Of a DNA stretch of 33,235 nt, positions 10,828-33,124 are shown piece by piece. Within the stretch, counting starts at the first letter, position 1; every line of letters begins with the position of its first letter. Below the pieces are notes generated by a model. It was not told the origin of the DNA. It worked only from the letters and a program-made list of their open reading frames with translations, and did no database searches. The stretch is from Candidatus Omnitrophota bacterium (GTDB lineage: Bacteria > Omnitrophota > Gorgyraeia > Aquiviventales > Aquiviventaceae): the NCBI GenBank assembly GCA_016180575.1, contig JACPAY010000013.1, forward strand, positions 1 to 33,235. Reading direction: 5' to 3'. The position numbers and the translations under genes are program-made.

Positions 10828-10992
10828 GTGTCTCAATTTGGCGGGTGACGCAGAGCCGGGGACCCCGTCGCCTGCCCGCAGGCGAAGGCCGAGGACAGCC
10901 GACGGGGTGGCGGCGTCCTTCGACTCGGCCTTCGGCCTCGCCGAGCGACCCACGGGAGTCGAGGGACGGCAGGACCCGCCAAATTGAGACAC
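10828..10992. repeat. Palindromic element A, 19-bp perfect private arms
   Basis: GTGTCTCAATTTGGCGGGT (10828-10846) is the exact reverse complement of 10974-10992. Between them lies the family core GGGTGACGC...GACAGCCGACGGGGTGGCGGCG (module A) joined to module B, TCCTTCGACTCGG...GAGTCGAGGGACGGCAGGACCC. The outer 15 bp of the arms occur in no other copy. Located between the lepB stop and the lipoprotein promoter, with no T-tract, so not an ordinary terminator. Confidence 0.9.
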
Positions 10993-10998
10993 GACTGC

Positions 10999-11601
10999 CT
11001 ACCGGAGGGCGCGCCAGCGGGGGAGGGGCCAGAAGATGACCATGGCCCGCCCGATCAGGAGCCGTTTCGGCACGAAGCCCCAGAACCGGCTGTCGTGCGA
11101 GGAGCGGGAGTTGTCCCCCAGCACGAAGAAGGCGTCCTCCGGCACCGTCACCACCTCCCCCTCCGCGCCGTAGACCCCCTGGTTGGCGTAGCGGGTGGCG
11201 CCGAAGACCCCCTCCGCCACCGGGCGGCCGTCGATGAGGAGCCGGCCGTCCCGGATCTCCACCTGCTCGCCGCCGAACGCGGCCAGCCGCTTGATGAACG
11301 GCCGCTTGGGATCGTCGGGGTAGCGGAAGACGATGACCTCCCCCCGCCGCGGCGGCCGGAAGCGGTAGAGGAACTTGTTGACCAGGATGCGGTCCCCCTC
11401 GATGAGCGTCGGCCGCATGGAGCCGGAGGGGATCTTGAACGGCGCCATGACGAAGGTCCGGATGACCAGGGCCAGCGCCACCGCCCAGGCCAGCGACTCG
11501 AGGTTCTCGCGCCAGGCCGAGCCGGCGCCCTGCCGACCTGCCCCCACACCAGGGCTGGTGTGGGGGTCCCCGGTCCGCGCCGGCCGGCGAGCGCGGCTCA
11601 T
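10999..11601 (-). CDS. lepB: Signal peptidase I
   Basis: A 200-residue type I signal peptidase. It has a transmembrane helix at about 38-53, the catalytic serine S61 in IPSGSMRPTL, the catalytic lysine K104 in PFIKRLAAFGG, and the box E motif FFVLGDNSRSSHDSRFWGFV. It cleaves signal peptides of exported proteins at the outer face of the inner membrane. The ATG (11599-11601) overlaps the lepA stop in an ATGA. Residues 12-20 are encoded by a perfect 11-bp-arm palindrome (11541-11566), part of a Gly/Arg-rich N-terminal extension before the membrane helix. One membrane span is the short form common outside gamma-proteobacteria. Confidence 0.94.
   Translation of the reverse strand: MSRARRPARTGDPHTSPGVGAGRQGAGSAWRENLESLAWAVALALVIRTFVMAPFKIPSGSMRPTLIEGDRILVNKFLYRFRPPRRGEVIVFRYPDDPKRPFIKRLAAFGGEQVEIRDGRLLIDGRPVAEGVFGATRYANQGVYGAEGEVVTVPEDAFFVLGDNSRSSHDSRFWGFVPKRLLIGRAMVIFWPLPRWRALR
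11541..11566. repeat. Palindrome inside lepB coding region
   Basis: CCCCCACACCA (11541-11551) and TGGTGTGGGGG (11556-11566) are exact inverted repeats with a 4-nt loop. They encode residues 12-20 of the N-terminal extension of signal peptidase I, outside the catalytic region. Confidence 0.75.
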
Positions 11602-13391
11602 ATCTTCAGCACGGCGAGAAACGCGTCCTGCGGGATCTCGACGTTCCCGAACTGCTTCATCCGTTTCTTCCCCTCCGCCTGCCGCTCCCAGAGCTTGCGC
11701 TTGCGGGTGATGTCGCCCCCATAGCATTTGCCCGTCACGTGCTTCGCCAGCGGCCGGACGCTCTCGCGGGCGATGATGTGGCTGCCGACCGCGGCCTGGA
11801 TCGCCACCTCGAAGAGCTGGCGCGGGATGAGCGTCTTCAGCCGCTCCACGAGCGCCTTCCCCTTCTCGTACGCCTGGTCTTTCGCCACGATGGAGGAGAG
11901 CGGCTCGCAGATCTTGCCGTTCAGCAGGATGTCGAGCCGCACGAGCTTGGCCGGCCGGTAGCCGAGCAGCTCGTAGTCGAACGACCCGTAGCCGCGCGTC
12001 AGCGACTTCAGCCGGTCATAGAAATCCACGAGGATCTCGGCCAGCGGGATCTCGAACACCAGTGTGACGCGGGTCTCGCTCAGGTACTCGGTGGACTTGT
12101 AGACGCCGCGCTTCTGCATCGCCAGCTCCATGAGCGGCCCGACCGCCTCGGCCGGCGCCAGGATGACGGCGCGGACGTACGGCTCGGCGATCGCCAGGAT
12201 GGTCCCGGCGGCCGGGAGGTCGTGCGGCCGGTGGATCTCGAGCGTCTTGCCGCCGTGCGCGGTCACCTGGAACACGACGCTGGGCGTCGTGAGGACCAGG
12301 TCCACCCCGTACTCCCGCTCCAGCCGCTCCTGCACGATCTCCATGTGCAGGAGCCCGAGGAACCCGCACCGGAACCCCTGGCCCAGCGCGTCGGACTGCT
12401 CCGGCTCGAACTGGAACGCGGCATCGGTCAGCGCGAACTTCTCCATCGCGGCCCGCAGGGTGGCGAGCTCCTGCGCGCTGGCCGGGTAGATGCCGGCGAA
12501 CACCATCGGCTTCAGGCGCGCGAAGCCCGGGAGGGGTACCGCCGCTGGCCGGCTGCTGTCGGTCACCGTGTCGCCGGCCACCACGTCGTGGGGATGGCGG
12601 ATGTTCGCGGTGAAGTAGCCCACTTCCCCGGCCCGCAGCTCGTCGACCCGCTCCGGCCGCGGGGTCAGGACCCCCAGCTCCTGCACCTCGAAGCGCTGCT
12701 GGTTCCCCATGAAGGTGACGCCCATCCGCGGGCGCATCGTGCCGTTGAAGAGCCGCACGAAGACGACCACCCCCTTGTAGGCGTCGTAGCTCGAATCGAA
12801 CACGAGGCACGAGAGCGGCGCCGCGGGGTCCCCGGCGGGCGGGGGGATCTCGCGGACGACCCGCTCGAGCAGCTCCTCGATGCCCTTCCCTTCCTTGGCG
12901 CTGGCCCGGGTGATGCGCGCGCCGGGGTCCTGGAGGAGGTGGGCGATCTCCGCCTCCACGCGCTCCGGCTGCGCGTTGGCGAGGTCGATCTTGTTGAGGA
13001 CTGGGATGACCGCGAGCCCCCGCGCCCGGGCGAGCTGGTAGTTGGCCACGGTCTGCGCCTCGACCCCCTGCGTCGCATCGACCACGAGGAGGGTGCCGTC
13101 GCACGCCTGGAGGCTCTTCGTCACCTCGAACGAAAAATCCACGTGCCCGGGCGTGTCGATGAGGTTGAGCACGTACGGCCGGCCGTCGGCCGCGCGGTAG
13201 CGCAGGCGCACCGCCGAGGCCTTGATCGTGATGCCCCGCTCCCGCTCCAGGTCCATGTCATCGAGGACCTGGGCGCGGAAGGTCCGCTCGTTGACGGCCC
13301 CGGTCGTCTGCAGCAGCCGGTCGGCCAGCGTGGACTTCCCGTGGTCGATGTGCGCGACGATGCAGAAATTCCGGATGGCGCTAGCCTCCAT
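11598..13391 (-). CDS. lepA: Elongation factor 4 (LepA)
   Basis: A 597-residue translational GTPase, full length. Opens with IRNFCIVAHIDHGKSTLADRLL, followed by RERGITIKASAVRLRY, DTPGHVDFSFEVTKSLQACDG and NKIDL. The LepA-specific C-terminus YGGDITRKRKLWERQAEGKKRMKQFG is present. EF4 back-translocates or rescues stalled ribosomes. Start ATG at 13389-13391 has GGAGG 7 nt upstream, but both site and first codons are part of palindromic element B, so the start region can pair with upstream RNA. The stop overlaps lepB. Confidence 0.97.
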   Translation of the reverse strand: MEASAIRNFCIVAHIDHGKSTLADRLLQTTGAVNERTFRAQVLDDMDLERERGITIKASAVRLRYRAADGRPYVLNLIDTPGHVDFSFEVTKSLQACDGTLLVVDATQGVEAQTVANYQLARARGLAVIPVLNKIDLANAQPERVEAEIAHLLQDPGARITRASAKEGKGIEELLERVVREIPPPAGDPAAPLSCLVFDSSYDAYKGVVVFVRLFNGTMRPRMGVTFMGNQQRFEVQELGVLTPRPERVDELRAGEVGYFTANIRHPHDVVAGDTVTDSSRPAAVPLPGFARLKPMVFAGIYPASAQELATLRAAMEKFALTDAAFQFEPEQSDALGQGFRCGFLGLLHMEIVQERLEREYGVDLVLTTPSVVFQVTAHGGKTLEIHRPHDLPAAGTILAIAEPYVRAVILAPAEAVGPLMELAMQKRGVYKSTEYLSETRVTLVFEIPLAEILVDFYDRLKSLTRGYGSFDYELLGYRPAKLVRLDILLNGKICEPLSSIVAKDQAYEKGKALVERLKTLIPRQLFEVAIQAAVGSHIIARESVRPLAKHVTGKCYGGDITRKRKLWERQAEGKKRMKQFGNVEIPQDAFLAVLKI

Positions 13392-13521
13392 CCCAATACC
13401 TCCGCAGGCGGGTCCTGCCGCGCCGCCACCCCACCGGCTGTCCTCGGCCTCGTCGGCCTGCGGGCAGGCGGCGGGGTCCCCGGCTCCGCGTCACCCGCCT
13501 GATGGGATTGGGATGGAGGCT
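13383..13521. repeat. Palindromic element B, arm copies lepA start
   Basis: AGCCTCCATCCCAAT (13383-13397) is exactly inverted at 13507-13521. Its left arm contains the lepA start codon and the next two codons. After an internal loop the arms continue as AGGCGGGT/ACCCGCCT and enclose the family core in reverse orientation. The lepA ribosome-binding site lies in the internal loop. Confidence 0.9.
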
Positions 13522-13535
13522 GCGCGCTATAGCCA

Positions 13536-14960
13536 TCAGGGGCGCTGGGCCAGCGACACGCCGAACGCAAGGAGCCGAGCGAGCCGGCCGCGCTGCGGCG
13601 TCTCGGCGTAGATGCGGACGATCGGCTCGGTGCCCGAGCGGCGGAAGAGGAGCCAGGAGTCGTCGCGCCCGATGAGCTTCACGCCGTCGAGCCGATTGGC
13701 GTTGACCACGGGCACGTCGGCGAGCGACGCCGGCGGCTGACGCTGGAGCCGGGCGAAGAGCCGCTCGACCTGCGGGAACGTCAGATGGAGATCCTGGCGC
13801 CCGTAGTGCCAGCGGCCGTAGCGGCGCTCAAGGTCCGCCAGCAGGGCCGCGAGCGTCTGCCGCCGGACCGCCATCGTCTCCAGGAGGAGCAGCCCGTTCA
13901 GGACCCCGTCGCGCTCCGGGAGATACCCCTTCACCCCGATGCCGCCGGACTCTTCCCCGCCGATGAGGACATCGTCCTCCAGCATCAGCTTGACGATGTG
14001 CTTGAACCCGACCGGCACCTCGAGGAGGCGCAGGCCGAGATCCTCCGTCAGCCGGTTGATCATCATCGTGTTGGAGACCGTCTTGACCACGGCGCCCGTC
14101 GCCTGGCGCGCCGTGATGAGGTGCTCAAGCAGGACGCACAGCACCTGCCCGGGGTTGAGCCAGGCGCCCCCGGGTCCGACGATGCCGAGCCGGTCGGCGT
14201 CCCCGTCGGTGGCGATGCCGAGGTCCGCCCGGTCGCTCCGCACCGCCCGGCTCAAGCCCAGCAGATGCGACGGGATTGGCTCGGGCGCCTCGCCCCCGAA
14301 GAGTGGGTCCGGCTCGGCGCGCCGCGTCTCCACGCGGCAGCGGCCGCCCGCGAGCAGCCGCTCGATCACGCGGCCCCCGACGCCGTGCATCGAATCGACG
14401 ACGACGCGAAGCCCCCGGCGCCGGATCGCGGCGAGGTCGATGAAGGCCGCGATGCCCTTGAGGAACGCGGGCATGAAGTCGGCCTGCCGGACGGCGCCGG
14501 CGCGCACCGCCTCCTCGAACGGCGCTCGGCGGACCGGCGTGCGGCCGAGGCGGCGCTCGATCGACGCGACCGTCTCCGTCGTCGCCGAGCCGCCGTAGGC
14601 CTCCTTGACCTTGATGCCGTTGTAGGCCGCCGGGTTGTGGCTGGCGGTGATCATGATGCCGAGCGGGAGGCGCTTCGCCACGACGGCGCGGCTGACGGCG
14701 CAGGTGGGCACCGCGCGGTCGCTGAGGATGCTCCGGAGGCCGTTGCCGGCGAGCACCTCGCAGACGGCGCGGGCGAAGTAGTCGGAGAGGAACCGCGAAT
14801 CGTATCCGACGGCGATGACCCCGCCCTTAAGGGCGGGGCGGGCGAGGCCCCGCGCGTGGCCGGCGATGGCCTGGGCGACGAGGCGCACGTTGTCCGCCGT
14901 GAACTCCTCGGCGATCACCGCCCGCCAGCCCTCCGTGCCGAACGTGATGGGGGATCCCAT
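13536..14960 (-). CDS. Phosphoglucomutase/phosphomannomutase family protein
   Basis: A 474-residue alpha-D-phosphohexomutase. The catalytic serine loop is ITASHNPAAYNGIKV, the metal-binding loop GDADRLGIVG, the sugar-binding loop GGEESGGIG, and the phosphate-binding loop FRRSGTEPIVRIYAE; all four domains are present. It interconverts hexose 1- and 6-phosphates; substrate (glucose or mannose) cannot be settled, though a mannose-1-phosphate guanylyltransferase gene lies at 17356. Residues 42-47 (PALKGG), just before the conserved GYDSRF, are encoded by the perfect palindrome 14819-14838. It starts 2 nt after the rpe stop codon. Confidence 0.92.
   Translation of the reverse strand: MGSPITFGTEGWRAVIAEEFTADNVRLVAQAIAGHARGLARPALKGGVIAVGYDSRFLSDYFARAVCEVLAGNGLRSILSDRAVPTCAVSRAVVAKRLPLGIMITASHNPAAYNGIKVKEAYGGSATTETVASIERRLGRTPVRRAPFEEAVRAGAVRQADFMPAFLKGIAAFIDLAAIRRRGLRVVVDSMHGVGGRVIERLLAGGRCRVETRRAEPDPLFGGEAPEPIPSHLLGLSRAVRSDRADLGIATDGDADRLGIVGPGGAWLNPGQVLCVLLEHLITARQATGAVVKTVSNTMMINRLTEDLGLRLLEVPVGFKHIVKLMLEDDVLIGGEESGGIGVKGYLPERDGVLNGLLLLETMAVRRQTLAALLADLERRYGRWHYGRQDLHLTFPQVERLFARLQRQPPASLADVPVVNANRLDGVKLIGRDDSWLLFRRSGTEPIVRIYAETPQRGRLARLLAFGVSLAQRP
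14819..14838. repeat. 20-bp perfect palindrome inside phosphohexomutase gene
   Basis: CCCCGCCCTTAAGGGCGGGG, identical to 4684-4703 after the GspB-like gene. Here it codes for a short surface-loop segment (PALKGG) between the N-terminal helix and the GYDSRF strand. Confidence 0.85.
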
Positions 14961-14962
14961 GC

Positions 14963-15619
14963 TCAGCCTCGCAGCGACCGGATCGCGTCTTGGTACGACG
15001 GAGCGCGGAAGATGGACGTGCCGGCCACCAGCACGTTGGCCCCGGCCTCCCGACAGGCTCGTCCGGTGAGCGCGTTGATGCCCCCGTCCACCGCGAGGTC
15101 GCCCGCGAAGGCCTCCCGCAGCTTGCGCACCTTCGGCATCGCCTCCGGCATGAACGCCTGCCCGCCGAAGCCGGGCTCCACCGTCATGACGAGGACAAGG
15201 TCCACCGCGTCGAGGAACGGCTGCAGGGCCTCGGCGCTGGTGCGCGGGCGCAGCGAGAGCCCCGCCTTCGCCCCCGCGCCGCGGATCGCCTCGAGCGCCT
15301 TCCGGAGGACGCTCTCGGTGCGCAGCCCCTCGGCCTCCACGTGCACCGTCAGGTAGTGCGCCCCCGCGTCGAGGAACGGCGTGAGGAACTCCTGGGGGCG
15401 GTCGAGCATCAGGTGGACGTCCAGCGGGACGCGGCTCGAGCGCCGGATCGCCTCCACGACGGCCGGGCCGATGGTCAGGTTCGGGACGAAGTGGCCGTCC
15501 ATCACGTCCACGTGCAACCAGTCCGCCCCGGCCGCCTCCACCTGGCGCACCTCCTCCGCGAGGCGCCCGAAATCGCAGGCCAGCAGGCTGGGCGCGACGA
15601 TGATCCGATGAGCGGTCAT
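14963..15619 (-). CDS. rpe: Ribulose-phosphate 3-epimerase
   Basis: A 218-residue TIM-barrel enzyme of the pentose phosphate pathway interconverting ribulose 5-phosphate and xylulose 5-phosphate. It shows APSLLACDFGRLAEEV, HVDVMDGHFVPNLTIGP, VMTVEPGFGGQAF and VDGGIN, covering the metal ligands and phosphate-binding loop. Normal length. The ATG at 15617-15619 has AAAGGA upstream at moderate spacing. The phosphohexomutase gene follows almost immediately, suggesting one transcript. Confidence 0.96.
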   Translation of the reverse strand: MTAHRIIVAPSLLACDFGRLAEEVRQVEAAGADWLHVDVMDGHFVPNLTIGPAVVEAIRRSSRVPLDVHLMLDRPQEFLTPFLDAGAHYLTVHVEAEGLRTESVLRKALEAIRGAGAKAGLSLRPRTSAEALQPFLDAVDLVLVMTVEPGFGGQAFMPEAMPKVRKLREAFAGDLAVDGGINALTGRACREAGANVLVAGTSIFRAPSYQDAIRSLRG

Positions 15620-15647
15620 GGGTCTTTGGGTCCTTTCGTTGGGGATG

Positions 15648-16931
15648 TCAGCCGATCCGGCAGAGCGCGGAAAGGCGGTTTGCCTCCGGCTCCGCGATCG
15701 GGCCGACGATCGCCAGGTGCATCTTGTCCGTCACGAACAGGTGGCGCGCGACCCGACGCAGGTCCCGCTCGGTCACCCGCGCCACGTGCTCCAGCAGGCG
15801 CTCCGTCCGCGCGACGCGCCCGACGGTCACCACCTGCTCCCCCATCCACAGCATGTGGTCCATTGTGTCCTCGAGGCCCATCAGCAGCTGCCCCGTGTAG
15901 TAGTCCTTCGCCCGCTTGAGCTCCGCGCGGGACACGGCGCCCCGGCGCATGCGGGCCAGCTCCGTGAAGATGGTGCGGACCGTCTCGGCGAGCTTCCCGG
16001 TGTCGCAGCCGGCATGGACGACGAAGGCGCCGGTGTCGTGGAACCGCTTGATCTGCGTGCCGATCTCATAGACGAGCCCGCGCTTCTCCCGCACCTCGCG
16101 GAAGAGCCGGGAGGACATGTTGGCGCCAAGCACGACGTGGAGCAGCTCCAGCGCGAACCGGTCCGGGTGGGTGCGCGGGATCGCGTAGGTCCCGGCGCAG
16201 AGGTGGCTCTGCTCGGTGGGCTTGTTCCACACGCGCACCTGCGGGCCCCGACGGGGACGGGGGGCGCGGAGGAAGCCGTTGAAGCGGCGCCCGCCGCCGG
16301 TCCCGAACGCCCGGCGGGCCTCGCGCGCGATCGCATCGGGCTCAAGCCGCCCGGCCGCGGCGACCAGCAGGTTGGGCGGCTGGTACATCCGCCGCCAGTA
16401 GCGCGAAAGGTCCTGCCGCGCCATCCGCCGGACGGTGTCGATCGTCCCGGAGAGCAGGAGTCCCAGCGGGTGGTCCGGCCAGAGCAGCTGGCTGAACAGG
16501 TCATGGACGTACTGGCCGGGGGTGTCATCGTACATCCGGATCTCTTCGATGATGACGTCCCGCTCCTTCTCGACGTCGGACGCCGCCAGGCGCGGCCGGC
16601 ACACCATGTCGGCGAGCACGTCGAGCGCCCGCCGCGCGTGCCGGGCGGGCACCTTGGCCAGGTAGCAGGTGAACTCCTCCGCGGTGAAGCCGTTGAGCGA
16701 GCCCCCCACCCCCTCGATGGCCTGTTTGAGCGCCTCGCAGGAGCGCCGGCGCGTGCCCTTGAAGAGCAGGTGCTCGATGAAGTGGGAGATGCCGGCGAGG
16801 CCCTCCGTCTCGTAGCGGCCGCCGGCGCGGACCCAGACGCCCACCGCGACGGACTGGGCCTGCGGCATCGGCCGCAGCGCGATGCCGAGGCCGTTGGACA
16901 GCGTGGTCAGATGGTAGGGTGAGGTTGTCAT
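15648..16931 (-). CDS. M16 family zinc peptidase
   Basis: A 427-residue insulinase-like peptidase. The inverted zinc motif HFIEH (50-54) and downstream glutamate region GFTAEEFTCYLAK are intact, as is the second M16 signature SRLFREVREKRGLVYEI. This size fits the single-chain bacterial PqqL/YmxG-like processing peptidases rather than long pitrilysins. No signal peptide is seen, so it is probably cytoplasmic. Start ATG at 16929-16931 overlaps the ruvX stop codon in an ATGA. In-frame sequence upstream of this ATG belongs to the shadow of ruvX. Confidence 0.93.
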   Translation of the reverse strand: MTTSPYHLTTLSNGLGIALRPMPQAQSVAVGVWVRAGGRYETEGLAGISHFIEHLLFKGTRRRSCEALKQAIEGVGGSLNGFTAEEFTCYLAKVPARHARRALDVLADMVCRPRLAASDVEKERDVIIEEIRMYDDTPGQYVHDLFSQLLWPDHPLGLLLSGTIDTVRRMARQDLSRYWRRMYQPPNLLVAAAGRLEPDAIAREARRAFGTGGGRRFNGFLRAPRPRRGPQVRVWNKPTEQSHLCAGTYAIPRTHPDRFALELLHVVLGANMSSRLFREVREKRGLVYEIGTQIKRFHDTGAFVVHAGCDTGKLAETVRTIFTELARMRRGAVSRAELKRAKDYYTGQLLMGLEDTMDHMLWMGEQVVTVGRVARTERLLEHVARVTERDLRRVARHLFVTDKMHLAIVGPIAEPEANRLSALCRIG

Positions 16932-17353
16932 CGTGGCTCGCTCTGGCGCCGGCGGTCCAGGAAGTCCTGGAGGATCAGCTGGGCCGCCACCTGGTCGATG
17001 GCCGCCTTGCGCGCGCGGCGCGAGGCGCCGGTCTCCCGCAGGGCGCGCGCGCCCTGCACGGTCGTGAGCCGCTCGTCCACGAACTCCACGGGCACCGCGA
17101 CGCGGCGGCGCAGCGCCTCGGCGAAGGCGGTGACCTTCCCCGCCTGCACGCCGCGCTCCCCGCGCATCGTCAGCGGCAGCCCGACCACGACGGCGGAGGC
17201 CCCATACTGCTCGGCCAGCGCCTGCACCGCCTCCAGGTCCCGGGACATCCCCCGCCGCTCGAGGACGCTGACCCGCTGCGCCGTGAGCCCGAGCGGATCG
17301 CTCACCGCGATCCCGATGCGCCGATCGCCGACATCCAGGCCGAGCACCCGCAT
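16928..17353 (-). CDS. ruvX: Holliday junction resolvase-like RuvX (YqgF)
   Basis: A 141-residue RNase H-fold protein. MRVLGLDVGDRRIGIAVSDP contains the catalytic aspartate, VVGLPLTMRGE the second strand, and VEFVDERLTT the third acidic motif; DQVAAQLILQDFL closes the domain. YqgF acts in 16S rRNA 5'-end maturation and has been proposed as a resolvase. It starts 2 nt after the guanylyltransferase stop codon and overlaps the M16 gene by 4 nt, so all three are one transcript. Confidence 0.94.
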   Translation of the reverse strand: MRVLGLDVGDRRIGIAVSDPLGLTAQRVSVLERRGMSRDLEAVQALAEQYGASAVVVGLPLTMRGERGVQAGKVTAFAEALRRRVAVPVEFVDERLTTVQGARALRETGASRRARKAAIDQVAAQLILQDFLDRRRQSEPR

Positions 17354-17355
17354 CG

Positions 17356-18453: not shown

Positions 18454-18469
18454 TCGTCCTCGCAGGTTC

Positions 18470-18565
18470 AGCCGCGGGTGACGCGGAGCCGGGGACCCCG
18501 TCGCCTGCCCGCAGGCGGAGGCCGAGGACAGCCGACGGGGTGGCGGCGCGGCAGGACCCGCGGCT
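18470..18565. repeat. Palindromic element C (short form)
   Basis: AGCCGCGGGT (18470-18479) is inverted exactly at 18556-18565, enclosing the module A core and the GGCAGGACCC end without module B. It lies between the trpA stop (18568) and the guanylyltransferase start (18453). At 96 bp it is the most compact copy and best defines the core. Confidence 0.88.
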
Positions 18566-18567
18566 TG

Positions 18568-19348: not shown

Positions 19349-19374
<26 letters not shown>
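18568..19374 (-). CDS. trpA: Tryptophan synthase alpha chain
   Basis: A 268-residue TIM barrel that cleaves indole-3-glycerol phosphate to indole and glyceraldehyde 3-phosphate. It contains [30 protein letters not shown] with the catalytic glutamate, [11 protein letters not shown] with the catalytic aspartate, and [10 protein letters not shown]. The ATG at 19372-19374 lies 26 nt inside the trpB 3' end. It is the distal gene of a trpBA pair that is separate from trpEGDC about 7 kb away. Confidence 0.96.
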
Positions 19375-20572
<1,198 letters not shown>

Positions 20573-20584
20573 GGGGAAATAACT

Positions 20585-23200: not shown

Positions 23201-23352
23201 ACTAGATGGTATCCCAAAACCCTTTGGGGCGGGTCCTGCCGCCTCCGGCACCCCGCCGTCCGTCCTCGTCCCGCCGCTGGCGGGACTGCGGTCGGCGGCA
23301 GGGGCCCCCCTCCGGCGTCACCCGCCAGATGGGTTTTGGGACGACGTCTAGT
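23201..23352. repeat. Palindromic element D, arm includes THEP1 stop codon
   Basis: The left arm from ACTAGATGG through TCCCAAAACCC to GGCGGGT (23201-23234) is matched by the inverted 23320-23352 with a few mismatches. The right arm includes the stop codon of the NTPase gene (23348-23350). The core is reversed relative to elements A and C and has an inserted CCCGCCGCTGGCGGG hairpin. TCCCAAAACCC is private to this locus. Confidence 0.88.
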
Positions 23353-24076: not shown

Positions 24077-24098
24077 CCGGCGGGGGACGGCGGACCGC

Positions 24099-24518: not shown

Positions 24519-24528
24519 GAGCCCTCCT

Positions 24529-25550: not shown

Positions 25551-25563
25551 CGCCAAGGCGCCT

Positions 25564-25929
25564 TCATGCGGCGCGGAGGACGCGGGTGTCGGCCAGGCGG
25601 TCGCCCCAATGCCGGCCCGCCCGCTCATGCGAGAGGGCGTAGAGCCCGGTCAGCCCCATGGCGAGGTTGATCAGCGGAATGACCCAGAGCAGGTTGCGGA
25701 CCGCCGAGGCCACGAACGTGCACCGCGCATGAGCTGTCCCCACGACCACCTTCAGCCCCATGAGGCGCTTGCCGACGCTCTGCCCCTCGAAGAGCCCGTC
25801 CCGCAGGAGCCAGTAGCCGGTGCTGGCGATCCAGCCAAGACCCCCGAAGAACGCCCCGAGCCCCAGAAAGAGCAGGAGGTCGATGAGCCACGCGTAGATG
25901 CGCTGCTGGGCGAGAGTGGGTTTCGCCAT
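25564..25929 (-). CDS. RDD family membrane protein
   Basis: A 121-residue membrane protein. It has RIYAWLIDLLLFLGLGAFF, which carries the first RDD-type motif (R...D), then GQSVGKRLMGLKVV, the conserved GxSxGKxLxGLxV signature, followed by AVRNLLWVIPLINLAMGL. RDD proteins are small three-helix proteins, some reported as Na+/H+ antiporter-like. The predicted promoter at 25939-25967 gives a nearly leaderless message. Confidence 0.85.
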   Translation of the reverse strand: MAKPTLAQQRIYAWLIDLLLFLGLGAFFGGLGWIASTGYWLLRDGLFEGQSVGKRLMGLKVVVGTAHARCTFVASAVRNLLWVIPLINLAMGLTGLYALSHERAGRHWGDRLADTRVLRAA

Positions 25930-25938
25930 CGCTCGATT

Positions 25939-25967
25939 ACTTTACCACATCACCGGGAATGGGTCAC
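25939..25967 (-). promoter_or_regulatory. Promoter of RDD gene inside nth 3' end
   Basis: Minus-strand GTGACC (25962-25967), 17-nt spacer, TAAAGT (25939-25944). Only 9 nt separate the -10 box from the ATG at 25929, so a leader of about 3 nt is expected. It overlaps the last codons of nth. Confidence 0.55.
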
Positions 25968-26603
25968 CCCGAGTTTGGGGCAGACCCGCGCCAGCGGACA
26001 GCGGCTGCACCAGGGCGAGGTGGGATGGCACATGTTTTGGCCGAGCGTCACGAGGAGGTCGTTGTAGGTGCGCCAATGCCGCCGCGGAAGCCGACGGCGA
26101 AGCGCCTGCTCGGTCTGCTCCGGCGTCTTCGTCCGCACGTAGCCCCACCGGTTGCTGATCCGATGGACATGCGTATCGACGCAGATGCCGTCCTGGTCGA
26201 ATGCGAGCGTCACGACGAGGTTGGCGGTCTTGCGCCCGACCCCCTTGATGGTCAGCAGCTCCTCCAGGCTCGCCGGGACGCGGCTGCCGTAGCGCTCGCA
26301 CAGCGCGCGGCACACCGCGAGGATGGTCCGCGCCTTCGTGCGGTAGAACCCGACCGGGTAGATGGCGCGCTCGATGGCGGCGGGAGACAGCCTGAGCATC
26401 TGCTCAGGCGTCCGCGCCAGGCGGAAGAGCCGCTGGGAGGCCGCGCGGGTGACGGCGTCCTTCGTGCGCAGGCTCAGCAGGCAGCTGATGAGCGTCGTAA
26501 AGGGGTCGTCGCGGTAGTGGCCGACGACCGGTATTTCCCACCGCCGGATGAGCCGCTTCACGGTGCGGAGGACGCCGTCAATGTTGCGATTCGTGACCAT
26601 CAC
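25950..26603 (-). CDS. nth: Endonuclease III
   Basis: A 217-residue bifunctional DNA glycosylase/AP lyase. The hairpin IKGVGRKTANLVV carries the lyase lysine K125, D143 follows in CVDTHVHRISNRWG, and the C-terminus has the complete C-x6-C-x2-C-x5-C iron-sulfur cluster loop (CHPTSPWCSRCPLARVC). It removes oxidised pyrimidines in base excision repair. The ATG overlaps the trpC stop in an ATGA, so a repair gene is translationally coupled to tryptophan synthesis here. Confidence 0.96.
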   Translation of the reverse strand: MMVTNRNIDGVLRTVKRLIRRWEIPVVGHYRDDPFTTLISCLLSLRTKDAVTRAASQRLFRLARTPEQMLRLSPAAIERAIYPVGFYRTKARTILAVCRALCERYGSRVPASLEELLTIKGVGRKTANLVVTLAFDQDGICVDTHVHRISNRWGYVRTKTPEQTEQALRRRLPRRHWRTYNDLLVTLGQNMCHPTSPWCSRCPLARVCPKLGVTHSR

Positions 26604-27376
26604 ATGCCGGCGAACAGCTCCCGGACCTTCGCGGCGGGGTCGGGGGCGGTCATCAGCGCCTCGCCCACGAGGACGGCGTGGACGCCGAGGCGCCGCATCC
26701 GCCGGACGTCCTCGGCGGTCTGGACGCCGCTCTCGGCGACGACCACCGTCCCCGCCGGCACCTTGGGCATGAGGCGGGCAGAGAGGTCCGAGTCCATCGT
26801 CAGCGTGTCAAGGTCGCGGTGGTTGATGCCGATGACGCGGGCACCCGCCCGCACCGCCCGGGCGAGCTCCTCCTCCGCGTGGACCTCGACGAGCGGCTCA
26901 AGACCCAACCCCTGGGCCGCCTGCAGGCACGCGGCAAGCTGGGCGTCGCTGAGGATGCGCACGATGAGCAGGACCGCGTCGGCCTCGTAGAGCGCCGCCT
27001 CGTACACCTGGTAGGGGTCGAGGATGAAGTCCTTGCGCAGCGCCGGGATCTGGGTGAACTGCTTGGCGTCGCGCAGGAAATCGAGGTGGCCGCCGAAGTA
27101 CGGCTCGTCGGTCAGCACCGAGAGCGCGGCGGCCCCGGCGGCTTCGAGCGTCTGGGCCAGGCTCACCGGGTCGAACCGCTCGCGCAGCATGCCCCGCGAG
27201 GGCGACTTGCGCTTCAGCTCGGCGATGAGGGAGAGCTTGCCCGGGACCTCGAGTGCTGCGCGGAAGTTGCGCTCCACCGCATGGCGCGCGAGGCGCGCTT
27301 TCAGCTCAGCGAACGGCAGCCGCGCCTTCGCCTCGGCGACCTCTTGCTCCTTGCGCCGCACGATCTCATCCAGCAT
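26600..27376 (-). CDS. trpC: Indole-3-glycerol phosphate synthase
   Basis: A 258-residue TIM barrel. The IGPS signatures LIAELKRKSPSRG, VLTDEPYFGGHLDFL, ALRKDFILDPYQVYEA, IGINHRDLDTL and VVAESGVQTAEDV are all present. It converts CdRP to indole-3-glycerol phosphate. This is a monofunctional TrpC with no fused TrpF. Start ATG 27374-27376 overlaps trpD by 11 nt. Confidence 0.96.
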   Translation of the reverse strand: MLDEIVRRKEQEVAEAKARLPFAELKARLARHAVERNFRAALEVPGKLSLIAELKRKSPSRGMLRERFDPVSLAQTLEAAGAAALSVLTDEPYFGGHLDFLRDAKQFTQIPALRKDFILDPYQVYEAALYEADAVLLIVRILSDAQLAACLQAAQGLGLEPLVEVHAEEELARAVRAGARVIGINHRDLDTLTMDSDLSARLMPKVPAGTVVVAESGVQTAEDVRRMRRLGVHAVLVGEALMTAPDPAAKVRELFAGM

Positions 27377-28358
27377 GGCTGAGCGCCTTCACGCGGTCGA
27401 GCAGCGATGCGGCGCGCCCGCCGGCGAGTGTGGCGTGGGCCTGCGCCACGCCGTCGTGGATCGTCCGGGTGAGCCCCGCGAGGTAGATGGCGCAGCCGGC
27501 GTTGGCGGCGACGATGTCCGATGCCGGTCCCGGGCGGCCCTCCAGCACCTCGCGCGCCAGGCGCGCGTTGTGCGCCGCATCGCCCCCGCGCAGCGCCTCC
27601 AGCGTCGCGCGCGGCAACCCAAGCCCCTCGGGCTCCAACCGGCGCCCGGTCAGGAGGTCCGCCTGGACCTCCACGGCGTCGGTCGGGCCAGTCGTCGTCA
27701 CCTCATCCAGGCCATCGGCCCCGCGCACCACGAGGCCATGGCGGATGCCCAGGCGCACCAGTGTTTCGGCCACCGGCCGCAGCAGGCGCGCCTGCGCGAC
27801 CCCGACGAGCTGAAAGCTGAGCGGCGCCGGATTGGCGAGCGGGCCGATGAGGTTGAAGATGGTGCGGATCTTCAGTTCCTTCCGGATGGGGGCGACCGCC
27901 TTCATCGCCGGGTGGAACCGGGGCGCGAAGCAGAAGCCGAAGCCCAGCTCATCCACGCAGCGCGCGACGACCGCCGGTGAGGCCTCCAGGTTGACGCCGA
28001 GCGCTTCCAGCAAATCCGCGCTCCCGCAGCGGCTGGAGGCGGCGCGGTTGCCATGCTTCACGACCCGCACCCCGGCGGCGGCGGCGACAAGGGCGGCCAG
28101 CGTCGAGACGTTGAGCGTGTCCTGGCCGTCGCCGCCGGTCCCGCAGGTGTCGCAGAGGTCGCGCGGGTTGGCGAGCGGCAGCGGCACGACGTGCGCGCGC
28201 AGCACCTCCACCGCCGCGGCCAGCTCCTCCGCGGTCTCCCCGCGCTCGGCGAGCGTCGTGAGGAACGCGCGGATTTCCTCCGGCGGCGTGCGGCCCTCCA
28301 TGATGGCGCCCAGCACGCGCCGCATCTCCTCGGCGCTCAGCGGCTGCTCAAACGCCAT
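27366..28358 (-). CDS. trpD: Anthranilate phosphoribosyltransferase
   Basis: A 330-residue enzyme transferring phosphoribose from PRPP to anthranilate. CDTCGTGGDGQDTLNVST is the PRPP/anthranilate-binding loop and KHGNRAASSRCGSADLLEALG the second; GLDEVTTTGPTDAVE closes the site. Normal length. The trpG-trpD junction is interrupted by palindromic element E, which starts 3 bases from the trpD ATG. Confidence 0.96.
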   Translation of the reverse strand: MAFEQPLSAEEMRRVLGAIMEGRTPPEEIRAFLTTLAERGETAEELAAAVEVLRAHVVPLPLANPRDLCDTCGTGGDGQDTLNVSTLAALVAAAAGVRVVKHGNRAASSRCGSADLLEALGVNLEASPAVVARCVDELGFGFCFAPRFHPAMKAVAPIRKELKIRTIFNLIGPLANPAPLSFQLVGVAQARLLRPVAETLVRLGIRHGLVVRGADGLDEVTTTGPTDAVEVQADLLTGRRLEPEGLGLPRATLEALRGGDAAHNARLAREVLEGRPGPASDIVAANAGCAIYLAGLTRTIHDGVAQAHATLAGGRAASLLDRVKALSHAG

Positions 28359-28360
28359 CA

Positions 28361-28488
28361 GCTGCTCCGTCGACGGGGTGGCGGCGTCCTTCGACTCGGC
28401 CTTCGGCCTCGCTCAGGATCCCGAGCGACCCACGGGAGTCGAGGGACGGCAGGACCCGCGGCCCCGGCGGGATGTTAGACGGAGCAGC
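28361..28488. repeat. Palindromic element E between trpG and trpD
   Basis: GCTGCTCCGTC (28361-28371) is exactly inverted at 28478-28488. The interior has the end of module A and all of module B up to GGCAGGACCC, so the 5' part of the core is missing. Unlike other copies it is also bracketed by a direct repeat GCCATCAGC (28354-28362 and 28487-28495), possibly a target-site duplication, though part overlaps the trpD start and trpG stop codons. Confidence 0.82.
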
Positions 28489-28490
28489 CA

Positions 28491-29081
28491 TCAGCGAAAC
28501 CGCCGCCGAGCCGCCTTGGCGAGCGCGAGGAAGTTGCGCAGCAGGTCCTTGCCCACCGACGTGAGGATGGACTCAGGATGGAACTGCACCCCGTAGACCG
28601 GCAGCGCGCGGTGCGCGAGGCCCATGATCTCCCGGTCCGACGTCCAGGCGGTGACGCGCAGCGCGCGCGGCAGCGTCTCCCGCTTCACGATGAGCGAGTG
28701 GTAGCGGGTCGCCTCGAACGGGCTGGGCAGCCCGCGGAACATCGCCGACCGGTCGTGGTAGATGCGCGAGGTCTTCCCGTGCATGGGGCGCTTCGCCCGC
28801 ACGACCTCCCCGCCGAACACCTCCCCGATGCACTGGTGGCCGAGGCACACCCCCAGGATCGGGATGCGTCCGGCGAACGTCTTGATGAGGGCGTTTGAGA
28901 TCCCCGCATCCGACGGGCGGCCGGGCCCTGGCGAGATGACGATGCTGGAGGGCTTCAAGCGCGCGATGCCCTTCAGGGTGATGGCGTCGTTGCGCTTCAC
29001 GACGAGCTTCTCGCCCAGCTCGCCCAGGTACTGGACGAGGTTGTAGGTGAACGAGTCGTAGTTATCGACCATCAAGATCAT
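28491..29081 (-). CDS. trpG: Anthranilate synthase glutamine amidotransferase subunit
   Basis: A 196-residue class I amidotransferase. [19 protein letters not shown] at the N-terminus, [12 protein letters not shown], the nucleophile C79 in [11 protein letters not shown], and the HPE triad part in VQFHPESI. It supplies ammonia to TrpE; in some bacteria the same subunit serves PabB. ATG at 29079-29081 is preceded by AGAGGA. It is separated from trpE by a palindrome rather than coupled by overlap. Confidence 0.95.
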
Positions 29082-29112
29082 GGAACTAATCCTCTGGTTG
29101 ACGCGTTAGCCC

Positions 29113-29175
29113 GTTTGCGCGTTAGCGCGTTGCACGTCAGAACGCGCCAACGCACCAACTCGCTAACGCGCAAAC
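29113..29175. repeat. Palindrome between trpE and trpG containing trpE stop
   Basis: GTTTGCGCGTTAGCG (29113-29127) is exactly inverted at 29161-29175, with shorter GCGTTAGC-type repeats around it (29100-29160). The right arm contains the last three trpE codons and its TAG stop. It carries no T-tract and no leader peptide. Confidence 0.78.
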
Positions 29176-30719
29176 CTCCGTTCGGCGATGGCGATCGCCT
29201 GGAGCATCGCCTTCGCCTTATTGAGCGTCTCCTGGTACTCGCGCGCCGGCTGCGAATCGGCCACGATGCCCGCCCCGGCCTGGATGTAGGCCCGCCCGTC
29301 CTTGATGAGGATGGTGCGGATGGTGATGCACGTGTCGAGGTTGCCGGAAAAGCTCAGGTACCCCACCGCGCCGGCGTACGGCCCCCGGTCATACCGCTCA
29401 AGCTCGGCGATGAGCTCCATCGCCCGCACCTTGGGCGCCCCGGTCACCGTCCCGGCTGGGAAGGTCGCCCGCAGGACGTCGGCTGCCGTCCGCCCGGGCC
29501 GCAGCCGCGCCGTCACCCCGCTCACCAGGTGCAGCACGTGCGAGTACTTCTCGACGACCATGAGCTCGGGCGTGCGCACCGAGCCGACCTGCGCCACCCT
29601 TCCTAGGTCGTTGCGCCCCAGGTCCACCAGCATGAGGTGCTCGGCCCGCTCCTTGGGACTCGTCCTGAGCTGCTGGATGAGCCGCTCGTCCTCCCGCTCG
29701 GTGGCCCCGCGCGGCCGCGTGCCGGCGATGGGCCGCGTCTCAAGGCGGCCCTCCTCGCACCGCACGAGCATCTCCGGCGAGGCCCCGACCAGCGACAGCC
29801 CCCCAAACCTCAGCAGGAACATGTACGGCGAGGGGTTGAGCGAGCGCAGGGCGCGGTACACATCGAGCGGCCCGCACGTGAGGTCCCGCTCGAGGCGCTG
29901 CGAGAGCACCACTTGGATGACGTCGCCGGCGCGGATGTAGCCCTTGGCCTTCGCGACCATCGCCTCAAACTCCCCCTGGCTGATGGCGGAGCGCACCTGC
30001 CCGCGTCCGGCACGCCTGCCTGCCGCGCCTCCGAAGATGCTTCCTGGCGCGGCGCAGGCAGGGCGGCGGGCGGTGGCGCGACGAGTCGGGCGTGGCGGCT
30101 CGACGCGCAGCCGCTCGGCCATCGCCTCGATGGCCTGGATCGCGTGCCGGTAGGCCGCGCGCGGCATCACTCCGCGCGTCTGCGCGTTTGCCACGAGGCG
30201 CAGCGTATGCTGGGCGTGGTCGAAGATGGCCATCGTGTCGGTCAGCATGAGCATGAGGTCCGGCACGCGTAGGTCATCGAGCTGGTGCGCGGGCAGCCGC
30301 TCCAGGAACCGGACCACGTTGTAGCCAAGGTAGCCGACCAGGCCCCCGCAGAAGCGCGGCAACCCAGGCACCGGCACAAAGCGGAAGCCCCGCATGAGCC
30401 GCTCCACCTCGCGCAGCGGATCCTCCCGCGTCTCAAACCGCCGCACCCGCGGCGCCCCGCCCCGGCTAAACTCCGACACCTCCATGTGCCGCCCGGTGGC
30501 AGTCACGAGCCACCGGGGCCGGCTGCCGAGGAACGAGAAGCGCGCGACCTTCTCCGTCCCCTCGACCGATTCCAGCAGGTAGCTGAAGCGCCCGTCGTCG
30601 AGCTTCAGGAACGCGCTCACCGGCGTCTCCAGGTCCGCGAACAGCTCCCCGTAGACCGGGATGACGTTTCCCCGCCTGGCCAGCCTGAGAAACTCAGATT
30701 CCGTGGGATAAATGTTCAT
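29163..30719 (-). CDS. trpE: Anthranilate synthase component I
   Basis: A 518-residue chorismate-using enzyme. The N-terminal domain includes LLESVEGTEKVARFSFLG; the C-terminal chorismate-binding domain has PIAGTRPRGATEREDE, GRNDLGRVA and FPAGTVTGAPKVRAMELI. It converts chorismate and TrpG-derived ammonia to anthranilate. Residues about 219-236, between the two domains, are encoded by the 51-bp palindrome shared with der (30014-30064). The last residues FAR* come from the palindrome at 29113-29175. The start codon is abutted by element F. Confidence 0.95.
   Translation of the reverse strand: MNIYPTESEFLRLARRGNVIPVYGELFADLETPVSAFLKLDDGRFSYLLESVEGTEKVARFSFLGSRPRWLVTATGRHMEVSEFSRGGAPRVRRFETREDPLREVERLMRGFRFVPVPGLPRFCGGLVGYLGYNVVRFLERLPAHQLDDLRVPDLMLMLTDTMAIFDHAQHTLRLVANAQTRGVMPRAAYRHAIQAIEAMAERLRVEPPRPTRRATARRPACAAPGSIFGGAAGRRAGRGQVRSAISQGEFEAMVAKAKGYIRAGDVIQVVLSQRLERDLTCGPLDVYRALRSLNPSPYMFLLRFGGLSLVGASPEMLVRCEEGRLETRPIAGTRPRGATEREDERLIQQLRTSPKERAEHLMLVDLGRNDLGRVAQVGSVRTPELMVVEKYSHVLHLVSGVTARLRPGRTAADVLRATFPAGTVTGAPKVRAMELIAELERYDRGPYAGAVGYLSFSGNLDTCITIRTILIKDGRAYIQAGAGIVADSQPAREYQETLNKAKAMLQAIAIAERRFAR
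30014..30064. repeat. 51-bp palindromic insert within trpE
   Basis: Same element as 9198-9248 in der: arms GCCTGCCTGCCGCGCC and GGCGCAGGCAGGGC, length again 51 bp (17 codons). It is read in a different codon phase from der, giving RPACAAPGSIFGGAAGRRA here against PAPRPADAAEARQAGG in der. Confidence 0.85.
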
Positions 30720-30723
30720 GGAC

Positions 30724-30883
30724 GCATTGCTCTATCGAAGGGGCTTCGGAGCGGCGTCGCGGGTGACGCGGAGCCGGGGCCCCCGCCGCCTGCCCGCAGT
30801 CCCGCCATCGGCGGGACGAGGACAGCCGGTGGGGTGGCGGCGCGGCAGGACCCGCGACGCCAGGTCTTCGACCGGACGAATGC
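30724..30883. repeat. Palindromic element F between hisI and trpE
   Basis: Inner arm GGCGTCGCGGGT (30753-30764) is exactly inverted at 30850-30861; further out GCATTGCTCTATCGAAG pairs imperfectly with the inverted 30867-30883. The core is module A with a CCCGCCATCGGCGGG hairpin inserted, as in element D. It lies directly before the trpE start. The outer motif ATTGCTCTATCGAA recurs in element G. Confidence 0.88.
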
Positions 30884-30885
30884 CA

Positions 30886-31293
30886 TCACCGCCCATAGAC
30901 TTTCGTGGGATTGAACACGCGCCGCCCGACGGTGACCAGCCGCCCGCCCTTGAGCCGCCGGAAGTAGCAGGTGAAGTAGCCCGCGTGGCAGGCCGCGACC
31001 TTCTGGCGCACGAGGAAGACGAGCGACTTCCCCTCGCAGTCCACCCGCACCTCGCGCAGCTGCTGCACGTGGCCCGACGTCTCGCCCTTCAGCATGAGGC
31101 GCCGCAGCGACCGCCGGAAGACGTACACCTTCCCTTCCTTCAGGCTCCGTGTGAGCGCGGCGCGATTGAGGTAGCACAGCGTCAAGACCTGCCTGGTCTT
31201 GGCATCCTGCACCACCGCCGGAATCAACCCCTGCTCGTCGAACCGTAGGAGTGCCCATAACGCTTGGAAGTTTTGTTTCTTATCTTTATTCAT
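30886..31293 (-). CDS. hisI: Phosphoribosyl-AMP cyclohydrolase
   Basis: A 135-residue HisI (monofunctional, no HisE domain). LTLCYLNRAALTRSLKEGKVYVF and LMLKGETSGHVQQLREVRVDCEG carry the PR-AMP binding and Mg ligand regions, and ACHAGYFTCYF contributes the zinc cysteines. It opens the purine ring of PR-AMP in histidine synthesis. It stands alone among trp genes with no other his gene in the window. The product ends in KVYGR*. Confidence 0.9.
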   Translation of the reverse strand: MNKDKKQNFQALWALLRFDEQGLIPAVVQDAKTRQVLTLCYLNRAALTRSLKEGKVYVFRRSLRRLMLKGETSGHVQQLREVRVDCEGKSLVFLVRQKVAACHAGYFTCYFRRLKGGRLVTVGRRVFNPTKVYGR

Positions 31294-31323
31294 CTATCAT
31301 CCAAGGTCGCCAGATACAGACGC

Positions 31324-32589
31324 CTATTCATTAAAGTGGTACCGGACAAGCAGAGCATGATCCGTTGCCTCCGCAGGCTCGACACAGTAAAAATCTTCCC
31401 CATCCCAGCCTGCGGCAAGTCTTAGATCAGTAATCGCCTTATTACCTGGCAGCTTAACGGAACGTCCTGTTCGTAAATCCAAAATTGCAGGTATCCGACC
31501 TTCAAACAAATAGACTCGCCGCCCCGTTGGCGACCACGTCATGTTGTTATAGGCATACGCAAAGTCGCTTGAAATCAGATAACTCGGTACTGATGTATCC
31601 GACTCTCTCATCTGTAAGGCATAACGGCCATCAACTTTTTGCAACCACGAAAACCCCATGGGACCAATCCGGCTAGCATTGGCCAACCCACTCACGGGTC
31701 TGGTGGTCCCTGTATCTAGATCAACGACATGGAACTCATCAGTCCTCTTGTACGGTTCCTTGATCACTACACTCGCCTCATCCCACCAGGCCTCAAGTTG
31801 CGGCAAGCCCCACGACTTAGGCAGATCAATCTGCCGAGCTTGACCTTCTCCGTCACCAACGGTAAGTTTATTCACGATCTCCCTCTGACCTGTTGATGCC
31901 GTTGAGCCAAAGTATTTCAAGGCCAGAAAACTATGGTTTCCAGCCTTCCACATGAATTGATTTACTTCCCCAAGCACCCACACGTCCTGAGATGCTAGAT
32001 GCAGCAAGCCCATTGTGTTCATCCCGCTCTCGCCATCTTGGCCATATCGGTCCACGGTTCGTAGGACATGGCCATCCGGTGATACATTGATAAAGATGAT
32101 GTTGGGGGTGATGGACATCATAGGTTCAAGAGAGATGTGCTCGATAGTTTTTGCTGCCCAATCATATTTCCATGCATCAACCGCCACATCCAACCGGCTC
32201 AGCCCTTCGCCATAGCTAGGATCCAAATTAAGCCAGAATCCGTTCGAGAAATCATCGGTCGGTTCCGTCGACTTCTTCCGATATTGCAGCCAATGACGAA
32301 TCGGAACAATGAGATCGGCTTTCCGGTGCGTCACAATGAAGATGTGAGGGCCTCGAAGTTCGACTGAATAGATTGAATGGCCGTTGAGCAGAGACTGCTC
32401 AAGCTCAGTTAAATCGGCTACTACCGTCCGACTTGTTTGAGCATAAGAGGGCGTAGGAACGACAACTCCAACAGTATAGACTGCCAAGAGCCATGTTAAC
32501 TTCAGAACGCACATGCACCGTTCTCGGTCTCCGACTGAAAACCTCTCCTTCCAAATTTGGCCGAAGAGTAGGTATCCAATCACCTTCAT
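31324..32589 (-). CDS. Secreted protein of unknown function, AT-richer than surroundings
   Basis: A 421-residue frame of unrecognised family. Around residues 26-50 lies a signal peptide, MCVLKLTWLLAVYTVGVVVPTPSYA, with likely cleavage before QTS. Translation may therefore begin at the ATG at 32512-32514 (396 residues); the longer start at 32589 has GAGG 5 nt upstream and is kept as the outer limit. The mature part has repeated WSPTGRRVYLF, DLDTGTTRPVSG and ILDLRTGRSVKLPG motifs with spacing that suggests a WD40-like/TolB-type beta-propeller. The sequence is visibly lower in GC and codon bias differs from all neighbours, so horizontal acquisition is likely. Confidence 0.7.
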   Translation of the reverse strand: MKVIGYLLFGQIWKERFSVGDRERCMCVLKLTWLLAVYTVGVVVPTPSYAQTSRTVVADLTELEQSLLNGHSIYSVELRGPHIFIVTHRKADLIVPIRHWLQYRKKSTEPTDDFSNGFWLNLDPSYGEGLSRLDVAVDAWKYDWAAKTIEHISLEPMMSITPNIIFINVSPDGHVLRTVDRYGQDGESGMNTMGLLHLASQDVWVLGEVNQFMWKAGNHSFLALKYFGSTASTGQREIVNKLTVGDGEGQARQIDLPKSWGLPQLEAWWDEASVVIKEPYKRTDEFHVVDLDTGTTRPVSGLANASRIGPMGFSWLQKVDGRYALQMRESDTSVPSYLISSDFAYAYNNMTWSPTGRRVYLFEGRIPAILDLRTGRSVKLPGNKAITDLRLAAGWDGEDFYCVEPAEATDHALLVRYHFNE

Positions 32590-32626
32590 CCTGCCCTCGG
32601 GAATTCCGGTGCCACAAGCCTATTTC

Positions 32627-32962
32627 CTAATCCTCCCCCAACAACTCCCCCAACTGCTGAACGAACGCAGAGCGGGGCAGCACGGTGGTGCAGCCGGCCT
32701 CGAGCGCCTGGCGCTGGAGGTCTTGCTGGACGTGCGAGCAGTAGCCGACCACCGGCACCGCCGGGTACGCCGCCCGCAGATTGCGGACCATCGCCAGCGC
32801 ATCGCCGCGCAGGTTCAGGTCAATGAGCACCCGTTGGGGCGGCTCCGTCCCGCGCGCCGCGGCCTCAGCATCGGCGGCAATCGTCAGCGAAGCCCCCACC
32901 TGCCCGGCCGCCGCCTCCAGCTTCCCCCGAAAGAGCAGGTCATCCACGATGGCCAGGATCAT
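32627..32962 (-). CDS. Receiver-like response regulator domain protein
   Basis: A 111-residue single domain. MILAIVDDLLFRGKLEAAA begins the strand-helix with D7-D8 at the acidic pocket, RVLIDLNLRGD puts D48 at the phosphoacceptor position, VVGYCSH corresponds to the T/S strand, and LPRSAF has Arg where CheY-like proteins have the conserved Lys. It resembles stand-alone CheY-like proteins but with a degenerate switch, so phosphorylation is uncertain. Back to high GC. It precedes the AT-rich gene with 37 nt between them. Confidence 0.72.
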   Translation of the reverse strand: MILAIVDDLLFRGKLEAAAGQVGASLTIAADAEAAARGTEPPQRVLIDLNLRGDALAMVRNLRAAYPAVPVVGYCSHVQQDLQRQALEAGCTTVLPRSAFVQQLGELLGED

Positions 32963-32990
32963 AGATGACTATGTAGGCGTTATTGCTCTG

Positions 32991-33124
32991 TCGAATACCT
33001 CGCTGGGCCGCGGGTGACGCGGAGCCGGGGCCCCCGCCGCTTGCCCGCAGGCCGACGAGGCCGAGGACAGCCGGCGGGGTGGCGGCGCGGCAGGACCCGC
33101 GGCCACCCGAGGGTGTTCGGCCGA
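32991..33124. repeat. Palindromic element G upstream of receiver gene
   Basis: GGCCGCGGGT (33006-33015) is exactly inverted at 33095-33104, with further imperfect pairing outward (TCGAATACC against the inverted end near 33116-33124). The core is the complete module A in the same orientation as C and F. Outside the left arm, ATTGCTCTGTCGAA (32982-32995) nearly matches the motif in element F. Confidence 0.86.

What the first reader, a model, noticed from the sequence alone, without database searches (positions are those of the whole stretch)
10828..33124. Family of intergenic palindromic elements with a shared core but locus-private matching arms
Copies at 10828, 13383, 18470, 23201, 30724 and 32991 share the ends GGGTGACGC and GGCAGGACCC and a GC-rich core; 28361 and 2172 are partial. 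In each full copy the core is enclosed by an inverted repeat of 10-35 bp whose sequence is unique to the locus, for example GTGTCTCAATTTGG at A, AGCCTCCATCCCAAT at B, TCCCAAAACCC at D. Ordinary transposons carry constant ends and make direct target duplications. Here the two flanks mirror each other instead. This suggests insertion into loops of existing hairpins, or inverted copying of the flank by snap-back template switching. All copies sit between co-directional genes.
Basis: partly seen in the sequence, partly recalled or inferred. Interest (0 to 1): 0.88.

Follow-up and report, generated by a model that had tools for sequence, protein, structure and literature searches.

The report
Shared-core palindromic MITEs, also inside genes
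The repeats are small transposon-like hairpin elements of a Candidatus Omnitrophota genome family that share one conserved folded core, carry one of at least three different sets of transposon ends, and have also inserted in-frame into essential protein genes; the 'locus-private arms' are mostly just those shared transposon ends.

Summary
The copies are real: six full ones in the window (model E-values 4e-9 to 2e-15) and about 70 in the 1.31-Mb draft genome, plus relatives in the same family of Candidatus Omnitrophota. The central claim fails for most window copies. Their arms are not private but three recurrent terminal-inverted-repeat 'shells': T1 (GGTSSTGTCTCAATTTG), T2 (TGCTCTGTCGAA) and T3 (CTAG-N5-ATCCCAAAACC). 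T1 makes 8-bp and T2 9-bp direct target duplications, so these are MITE-like. Copy A duplicates GCCTACCG; copy G splits an overlapping trpG/trpD stop-start (TGATG) and duplicates it. Permuting arms among copies of one shell leaves pairing unchanged. What remains unusual: one core with strong compensatory pairing sits in several shells with different duplication lengths. The core also lies in-frame inside CarB, PriA, BirA, MiaB and PolA, like Rickettsia palindromic elements. Insertion into pre-existing hairpin loops is neither shown nor excluded; snap-back copying is not supported for shelled copies. New variant of a known kind.

The parts
10824..10996 (+). Copy A: complete T1 element (TIRs GGTGGTGTCTCAATTTG / CAAATTGAGACACGACT around a long-form core)
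10816..10823 (.). Left 8-bp target duplication of A, GCCTACCG
10997..11004 (.). Right 8-bp target duplication of A, GCCTACCG; it contains the stop codon of the signal peptidase gene
13390..13514 (-). Copy B: T3 element; its end carries GGAGG and the ATG read as the start of lepA
18474..18561 (+). Copy C: core without recognisable shell; short matched flanks AGCC/GGCT
23211..23342 (-). Copy D: T3 element with a diverged core; CTAG lies outside both ends
28363..28486 (+). Copy G: T2 element with partial core between trpG and trpD
28354..28362 (.). 9-bp target duplication of G, GCCATCAGC; read on the minus strand it holds the trpD start ATG
28487..28495 (.). Second 9-bp duplication of G; read on the minus strand it holds the trpG stop TGA
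30728..30855 (+). Copy E: left T2 end and full core; right end decayed
32984..33100 (+). Copy F: left T2 end and full core; right end decayed
2177..2234 (+). Copy H: fragment of the long-form core (right part only)

Best explanation
The window copies are MITE-like non-autonomous transposable elements. Each has a terminal-inverted-repeat shell of one of three types (T1, T2, T3) and a common, almost fully palindromic core of about 85-140 nt with conserved asymmetric internal loops. Shown: the shells recur at unrelated loci; T1 makes 8-bp and T2 9-bp direct duplications; most T3 copies have CTAG next to one or both ends; the same core occurs in all three shells and in relatives' variants of them; pairing in the core is kept by compensatory changes; copies also lie in-frame in protein genes. 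Inferred: transposases acting in trans on the shell ends moved shell plus core, and at least two kinds are needed because the duplication lengths differ. Also inferred: the core is a separate module that was exchanged between shells and can sit without a shell. The mirrored arms arise because transposon ends are inverted repeats and the core continues that stem, not because a flank was copied.
For: Recurrent ends. Flank agreement 0.86 against 0.26 at 8 bp for T1 and 0.86 against 0.30 at 9 bp for T2, near background at neighbouring lengths; an unsupervised scan picks offset 17/17 and length 8 for T1; the same lengths in relatives. Arms no better matched within than between copies of a shell. 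Copy G restores an overlapping trpG/trpD TGATG junction when its flanks are joined. Core covariation: 245 doubly changed cells against 73 in shuffles.
Against: No transposase gene bounded by T1, T2 or T3 ends was found; only two families were searched (IS1595 absent from this genome, one Y1 gene flanked by other palindromes). No duplication could be shown for T3. Many T2 copies have lost an end. Naked copies show no duplication. How one core came into several shells is not shown.
Confidence: 0.8

Rival explanations
1. Russian-doll model: the core is itself a mobile hairpin that inserts without target duplication into the centre of short palindromes or hairpin loops, including the centres of MITEs and coding linkers. 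The shells then amplify it secondarily. This is a modified form of the first reader's hairpin-loop idea and is compatible with the MITE reading of shelled copies.
For: Naked copies with matched 4-6-bp flanks and no duplication. One core in shells of different duplication length. MiaB and CarB positions that hold unrelated hairpins in other genera. Tips inside the core are swapped too.
Against: No coreless shell was found (biased sample); the only solo hairpin is a deletion derivative. No empty site with the matched flanks was seen. Short matched flanks may be the base of a stem that is kept by selection after insertion.
Confidence: 0.25
2. One reading: arms are private to each locus, made by inverted copying of the flank (snap-back template switching).
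For: Matched variable flanks in naked copies.
Against: Arms of shelled copies recur at unrelated loci, do not pair better within than between copies, and are followed by direct duplications. Most window copies have such arms.
Confidence: 0.05
3. The core is a structured RNA (cis-regulatory or small RNA) and the variable arms are its basal stem.
For: Conserved loops, compensatory pairs and more G-U than A-C on one strand (31 to 7, printed counts doubled).
Against: No Rfam match. Both orientations occur relative to genes in the window (A, C, E, F against, B and D with the minus-strand genes) and even at the same MiaB position (L284 against L327). Copies lie inside coding frames.
Confidence: 0.12
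4. Assembly artefact of the metagenome.
For: Some contigs end inside or near copies.
Against: Exact duplications at unique loci, open frames across copies and several independent genomes with the core at the same MiaB position.
Confidence: 0.02

Closest known systems
Prokaryotic MITEs (such as RUP, Correia/NEMIS, QMITE; reviewed in PMC10969869 and PMC2229807)
   Same: 50-500 bp, inverted-repeat ends, direct target duplications of fixed length, no coding capacity of their own, high copy number, strong hairpins next to genes.
   Different: One and the same core is shared by shells with different ends and different duplication lengths; shell-less copies exist; no parent insertion sequence found here.
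Rickettsia palindromic elements, RPE (Ogata et al. 2000, as described in PMC2229807 and PMC10969869)
   Same: About 100-150-bp palindromic repeats found both between genes and in-frame inside conserved protein genes, readable in frame without stops.
   Different: No sequence comparison with RPEs was made; GC-rich, other phylum; here ends with target duplications are demonstrable and the core shows compensatory pairing.
REP / RAYT-associated palindromes (PMC3733652)
   Same: Dispersed intergenic palindromes; one Y1 transposase gene in this genome is flanked by AAAAAGTACCGSGTACTTTTT palindromes.
   Different: REPs are 20-40 bp without duplications; the present elements are longer, with T1/T2 duplications. 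T2 copies insert into REP-like palindromes instead.
Integron attC sites
   Same: Works-like resemblance only (from general knowledge): folded palindrome with conserved unpaired bases, free stem sequence and variable tip.
   Different: Dispersed single copies with target duplications; no attC boxes seen; no integron integrase was looked for.

Membership tests
MITE | Terminal inverted repeats that recur at unrelated loci | tested here: met
   T1, T2, T3
MITE | Direct target duplication of fixed length | tested here: met
   T1 8 bp, T2 9 bp; T3 not demonstrable; naked copies not met
MITE | Ends shared with an autonomous insertion sequence | tested here: inconclusive
   IS1595 absent from this genome and ends of three relatives' copies do not match; other transposase families not searched
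Rickettsia palindromic elements | In-frame insertion in conserved protein genes as well as between genes | tested here: met
   CarB, PriA, BirA, MiaB, PolA
Rickettsia palindromic elements | Sequence homology to an RPE family | not tested
   no RPE sequence was compared; not filed as a member
REP/RAYT palindromes | 20-40-bp palindromes flanking a Y1 transposase gene | tested here: not met
   the one Y1 gene in this genome is flanked by different palindromes; size and duplications differ
IS630-type MITE (T3 only) | TA duplication, often within CTAG, and an IS630 transposase | tested here: inconclusive
   CTAG next to one or both ends in most T3 copies; transposase not searched; the CTAG preference is from general knowledge
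Known Rfam RNA family | Match at or above a gathering score | tested here: not met
attC site | attC boxes and an integron integrase | not tested
   boxes not seen by eye; integrase not searched

The most novel reading that the evidence does not exclude
The core is an autonomous kind of mobile hairpin that inserts without target duplication into the centres of existing palindromes. These include the centres of unrelated MITEs, which then carry it around, and permissive linkers of essential proteins. The result is nested palindromes whose matched flanks predate the insertion.
Probability: 0.22. Interest if true: 0.85.

Novelty: new variant of a known kind. Interest (0 to 1): 0.6.

Why it matters
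It extends the Rickettsia-type phenomenon of palindromic selfish DNA inside conserved proteins to an uncultured phylum and offers natural occupied/empty series (MiaB, CarB, PriA, PolA) across genera. It also shows one folded module riding on several transposon end types, which raises the testable question of how palindromes exchange their interiors. Annotators of such genomes should expect in-frame hairpin peptides and start codons supplied by elements.

Tried and rejected
Core as an element with 4-bp duplications next to TG..CA ends: AATT in T1, GGCC in MiaB and AATG in PolA looked right, but relatives' T1 variants (AGTT/AACT, CGTT/AACG) and frame arithmetic contradict it, and no offset gives direct repeats in naked copies. 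IS1595 as the T1 transposase: absent from this genome, ends of relatives' copies do not match. Y1/RAYT as mobiliser: one gene, flanked by different palindromes. Solo T1 hairpin at C8:22834 (L114) as an empty host: its interior is the start of the core, so it is read as a deletion derivative. Plasmids, phages, viral contigs: one weak partial plasmid match inside an adenine deaminase gene, otherwise none. Pattern hits in Actinobacteria and other phyla are chance: only Omnitrophota loci match the covariance model. Literature searches in the held library found no report for Omnitrophota and no prokaryotic MITE sharing an interior across different ends; that is absence in this library only.

Full report
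Setting. The window is contig C5 of a 1.31-Mb draft genome (84.6% complete, 28 contigs).

The observation. Five of the six full copies match GCGGGTGACGCNGAGCCGG without mismatch, where 0.5 matches are expected with three mismatches allowed; D belongs to a diverged variant. A covariance model made from 68 copies finds the six full copies with E 4e-9 to 2e-15 and nothing else below 0.2. In the whole genome the 11-mer GCGGGTGACGC gives 68 exact sites, and about 70 full copies were extracted (a few of these may be spurious pairings). Of 59 genomes searched, 18 have BLAST matches, all within the same family; the genomes of other families in the order and class have none. Phages and viral contigs lack it, and plasmids give one weak partial match.

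The arms are not private. Listing both flanks of every copy shows recurrent ends. T1 is GGTCGTGTCTCAATTTG at one end and GGTGCTGTCTCAATTTG at the other. T2 is TGCTCTGTCGAAnACC...GGCC. T3 is CTAG-N5-ATCCCAAAACCCCTCTG. Window copy A is T1, B and D are T3, and E, F and G are T2; C has no recognisable shell. If arms were private, a left arm should pair better with its own right arm than with another copy's. Within T1 (21 copies) and T2 (34 copies, including those keeping only the inner GGCC) of this genome it does not (positions 7-20: p=0.77 and 0.74). T3 has too few copies to say.

Direct target duplications exist. For 15 T1 pairs the 8 bp on either side agree at 0.86 against 0.26 when swapped. 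For seven T2 pairs the figure at 9 bp is 0.86 against 0.30. Neighbouring lengths are near background. An unsupervised offset scan over 44 T1-type copies of this genome and relatives selects 17 nt on both sides and length 8. Relatives' T1 and T2 copies keep the same lengths although their end sequences have drifted (GGTAGTGGTCAAGTTTG; TGCTCCGTCGAAAACC). Copy A duplicates GCCTACCG. Copy G is the clearest case: joining its flanks gives trpG ending in CGCTGATGGCG, overlapping the trpD start (TGATG), and the duplicated GCTGATGGC leaves both a trpG stop and a trpD start intact. Copy B's T3 end carries a GGAGG and the ATG read as the start of lepA.

No sign that the shells were hairpins waiting for a core. 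In 1.07 Mb of fetched sequence every convincing T1, T2 or T3 shell contains core sequence (the sample is biased because most loci were fetched through the core). The one coreless T1 hairpin (L114) still holds the first bases of the core and is best read as an internal deletion.

The core. Aligning 68 copies shows invariant or nearly invariant blocks facing each other across asymmetric loops (GGGTGACGC with GCGGCAGGACCC; CCCGCAG with CGAGGAC) and stems that change on both sides. For the predicted fold 96.5% of cells pair, 245 cells are changed on both sides (shuffled mean 73, slid versions at most 76) and the covariation score is 0.41 (shuffled 0.14). At the base part of this reflects a few shell types rather than many independent changes; inside the core (columns 22-23, 34-35) it does not. 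G-U exceeds A-C on the oriented strand (31 to 7 without the two outermost pairs, whose printed counts are doubled because the file was read twice), so one strand may be the one that folds, as RNA or as single-stranded DNA. Tips are replaced by different short hairpins. No Rfam family matches.

Naked copies. Fifty-two copies, nine of them in this genome, have no shell. They show no direct repeat at any offset, yet their flanks pair for 4.2 bp on average against 0.7 expected. Whether the flanks were there before insertion is not known.

Inside genes. Reading frames continue through copies in CarB and BirA, in PriA at the linker and at the N-terminus, in relatives' MiaB (both orientations) and PriA, and in PolA of one relative. 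Pfam domains lie on both sides. Among relatives the MiaB position is empty in some genera (G004, G006, G007, G012) and holds unrelated palindromes in others. The CarB linker carries the core only in this genome among those examined, and unrelated hairpins in many others. So permissive linkers are repeatedly colonised by hairpins of different kinds. This resembles Rickettsia palindromic elements as described in PMC2229807 and PMC10969869.

Mechanism. Best supported: trans-mobilised MITEs, at least two kinds because duplication lengths differ, sharing one folded module. Shown: recurrence, ends, duplications, covariation, in-frame copies. Inferred: the transposases, and that the module was exchanged between shells. 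Open: how the module enters a shell, how naked copies arrive, and whether the fold acts as DNA or RNA. Snap-back copying of the flank is not needed for any shelled copy.

Noticed in passing
window 9197-9256 (in the der/EngA ORF 8367-10031, minus) and 30013-30072 (in the trpE ORF 29163-30719, minus): A second, different palindromic repeat (83% identical between the two places) lies in-frame in the linker between the two GTPase domains of Der and between the two Pfam domains of TrpE.
   Followed up: partly
L434-L446, CarB interdomain linker of relatives: In many genera of the family the same CarB linker holds unrelated hairpins, several built of tandem units of about seven bases (such as GGGGCAT repeats facing GTCCCAC repeats).
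   Followed up: partly
L003, L007, L010, L014, L024, L093, L095; L289 in G001: T2 elements often sit in AAAAAGTGCCAGGCAC- or AAAAAGTACCGG-type palindromes, similar to those that flank the single Y1 (RAYT-like) gene of this genome (L276).
   Followed up: partly
window 29096-29176: A long hairpin made of GCGTTA-like tandem units between trpE and trpG.
   Followed up: no
window 13389-13414: The lepA start codon and a GGAGG upstream of it lie in the T3 end of copy B, so the element may supply translation initiation.
   Followed up: partly
window 4683-4711 and 14811-14839: The palindrome CCCCGCCCTTAAGGGCGGGG occurs twice, once inside the phosphoglucomutase reading frame and once directly after another ORF.
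   Followed up: no
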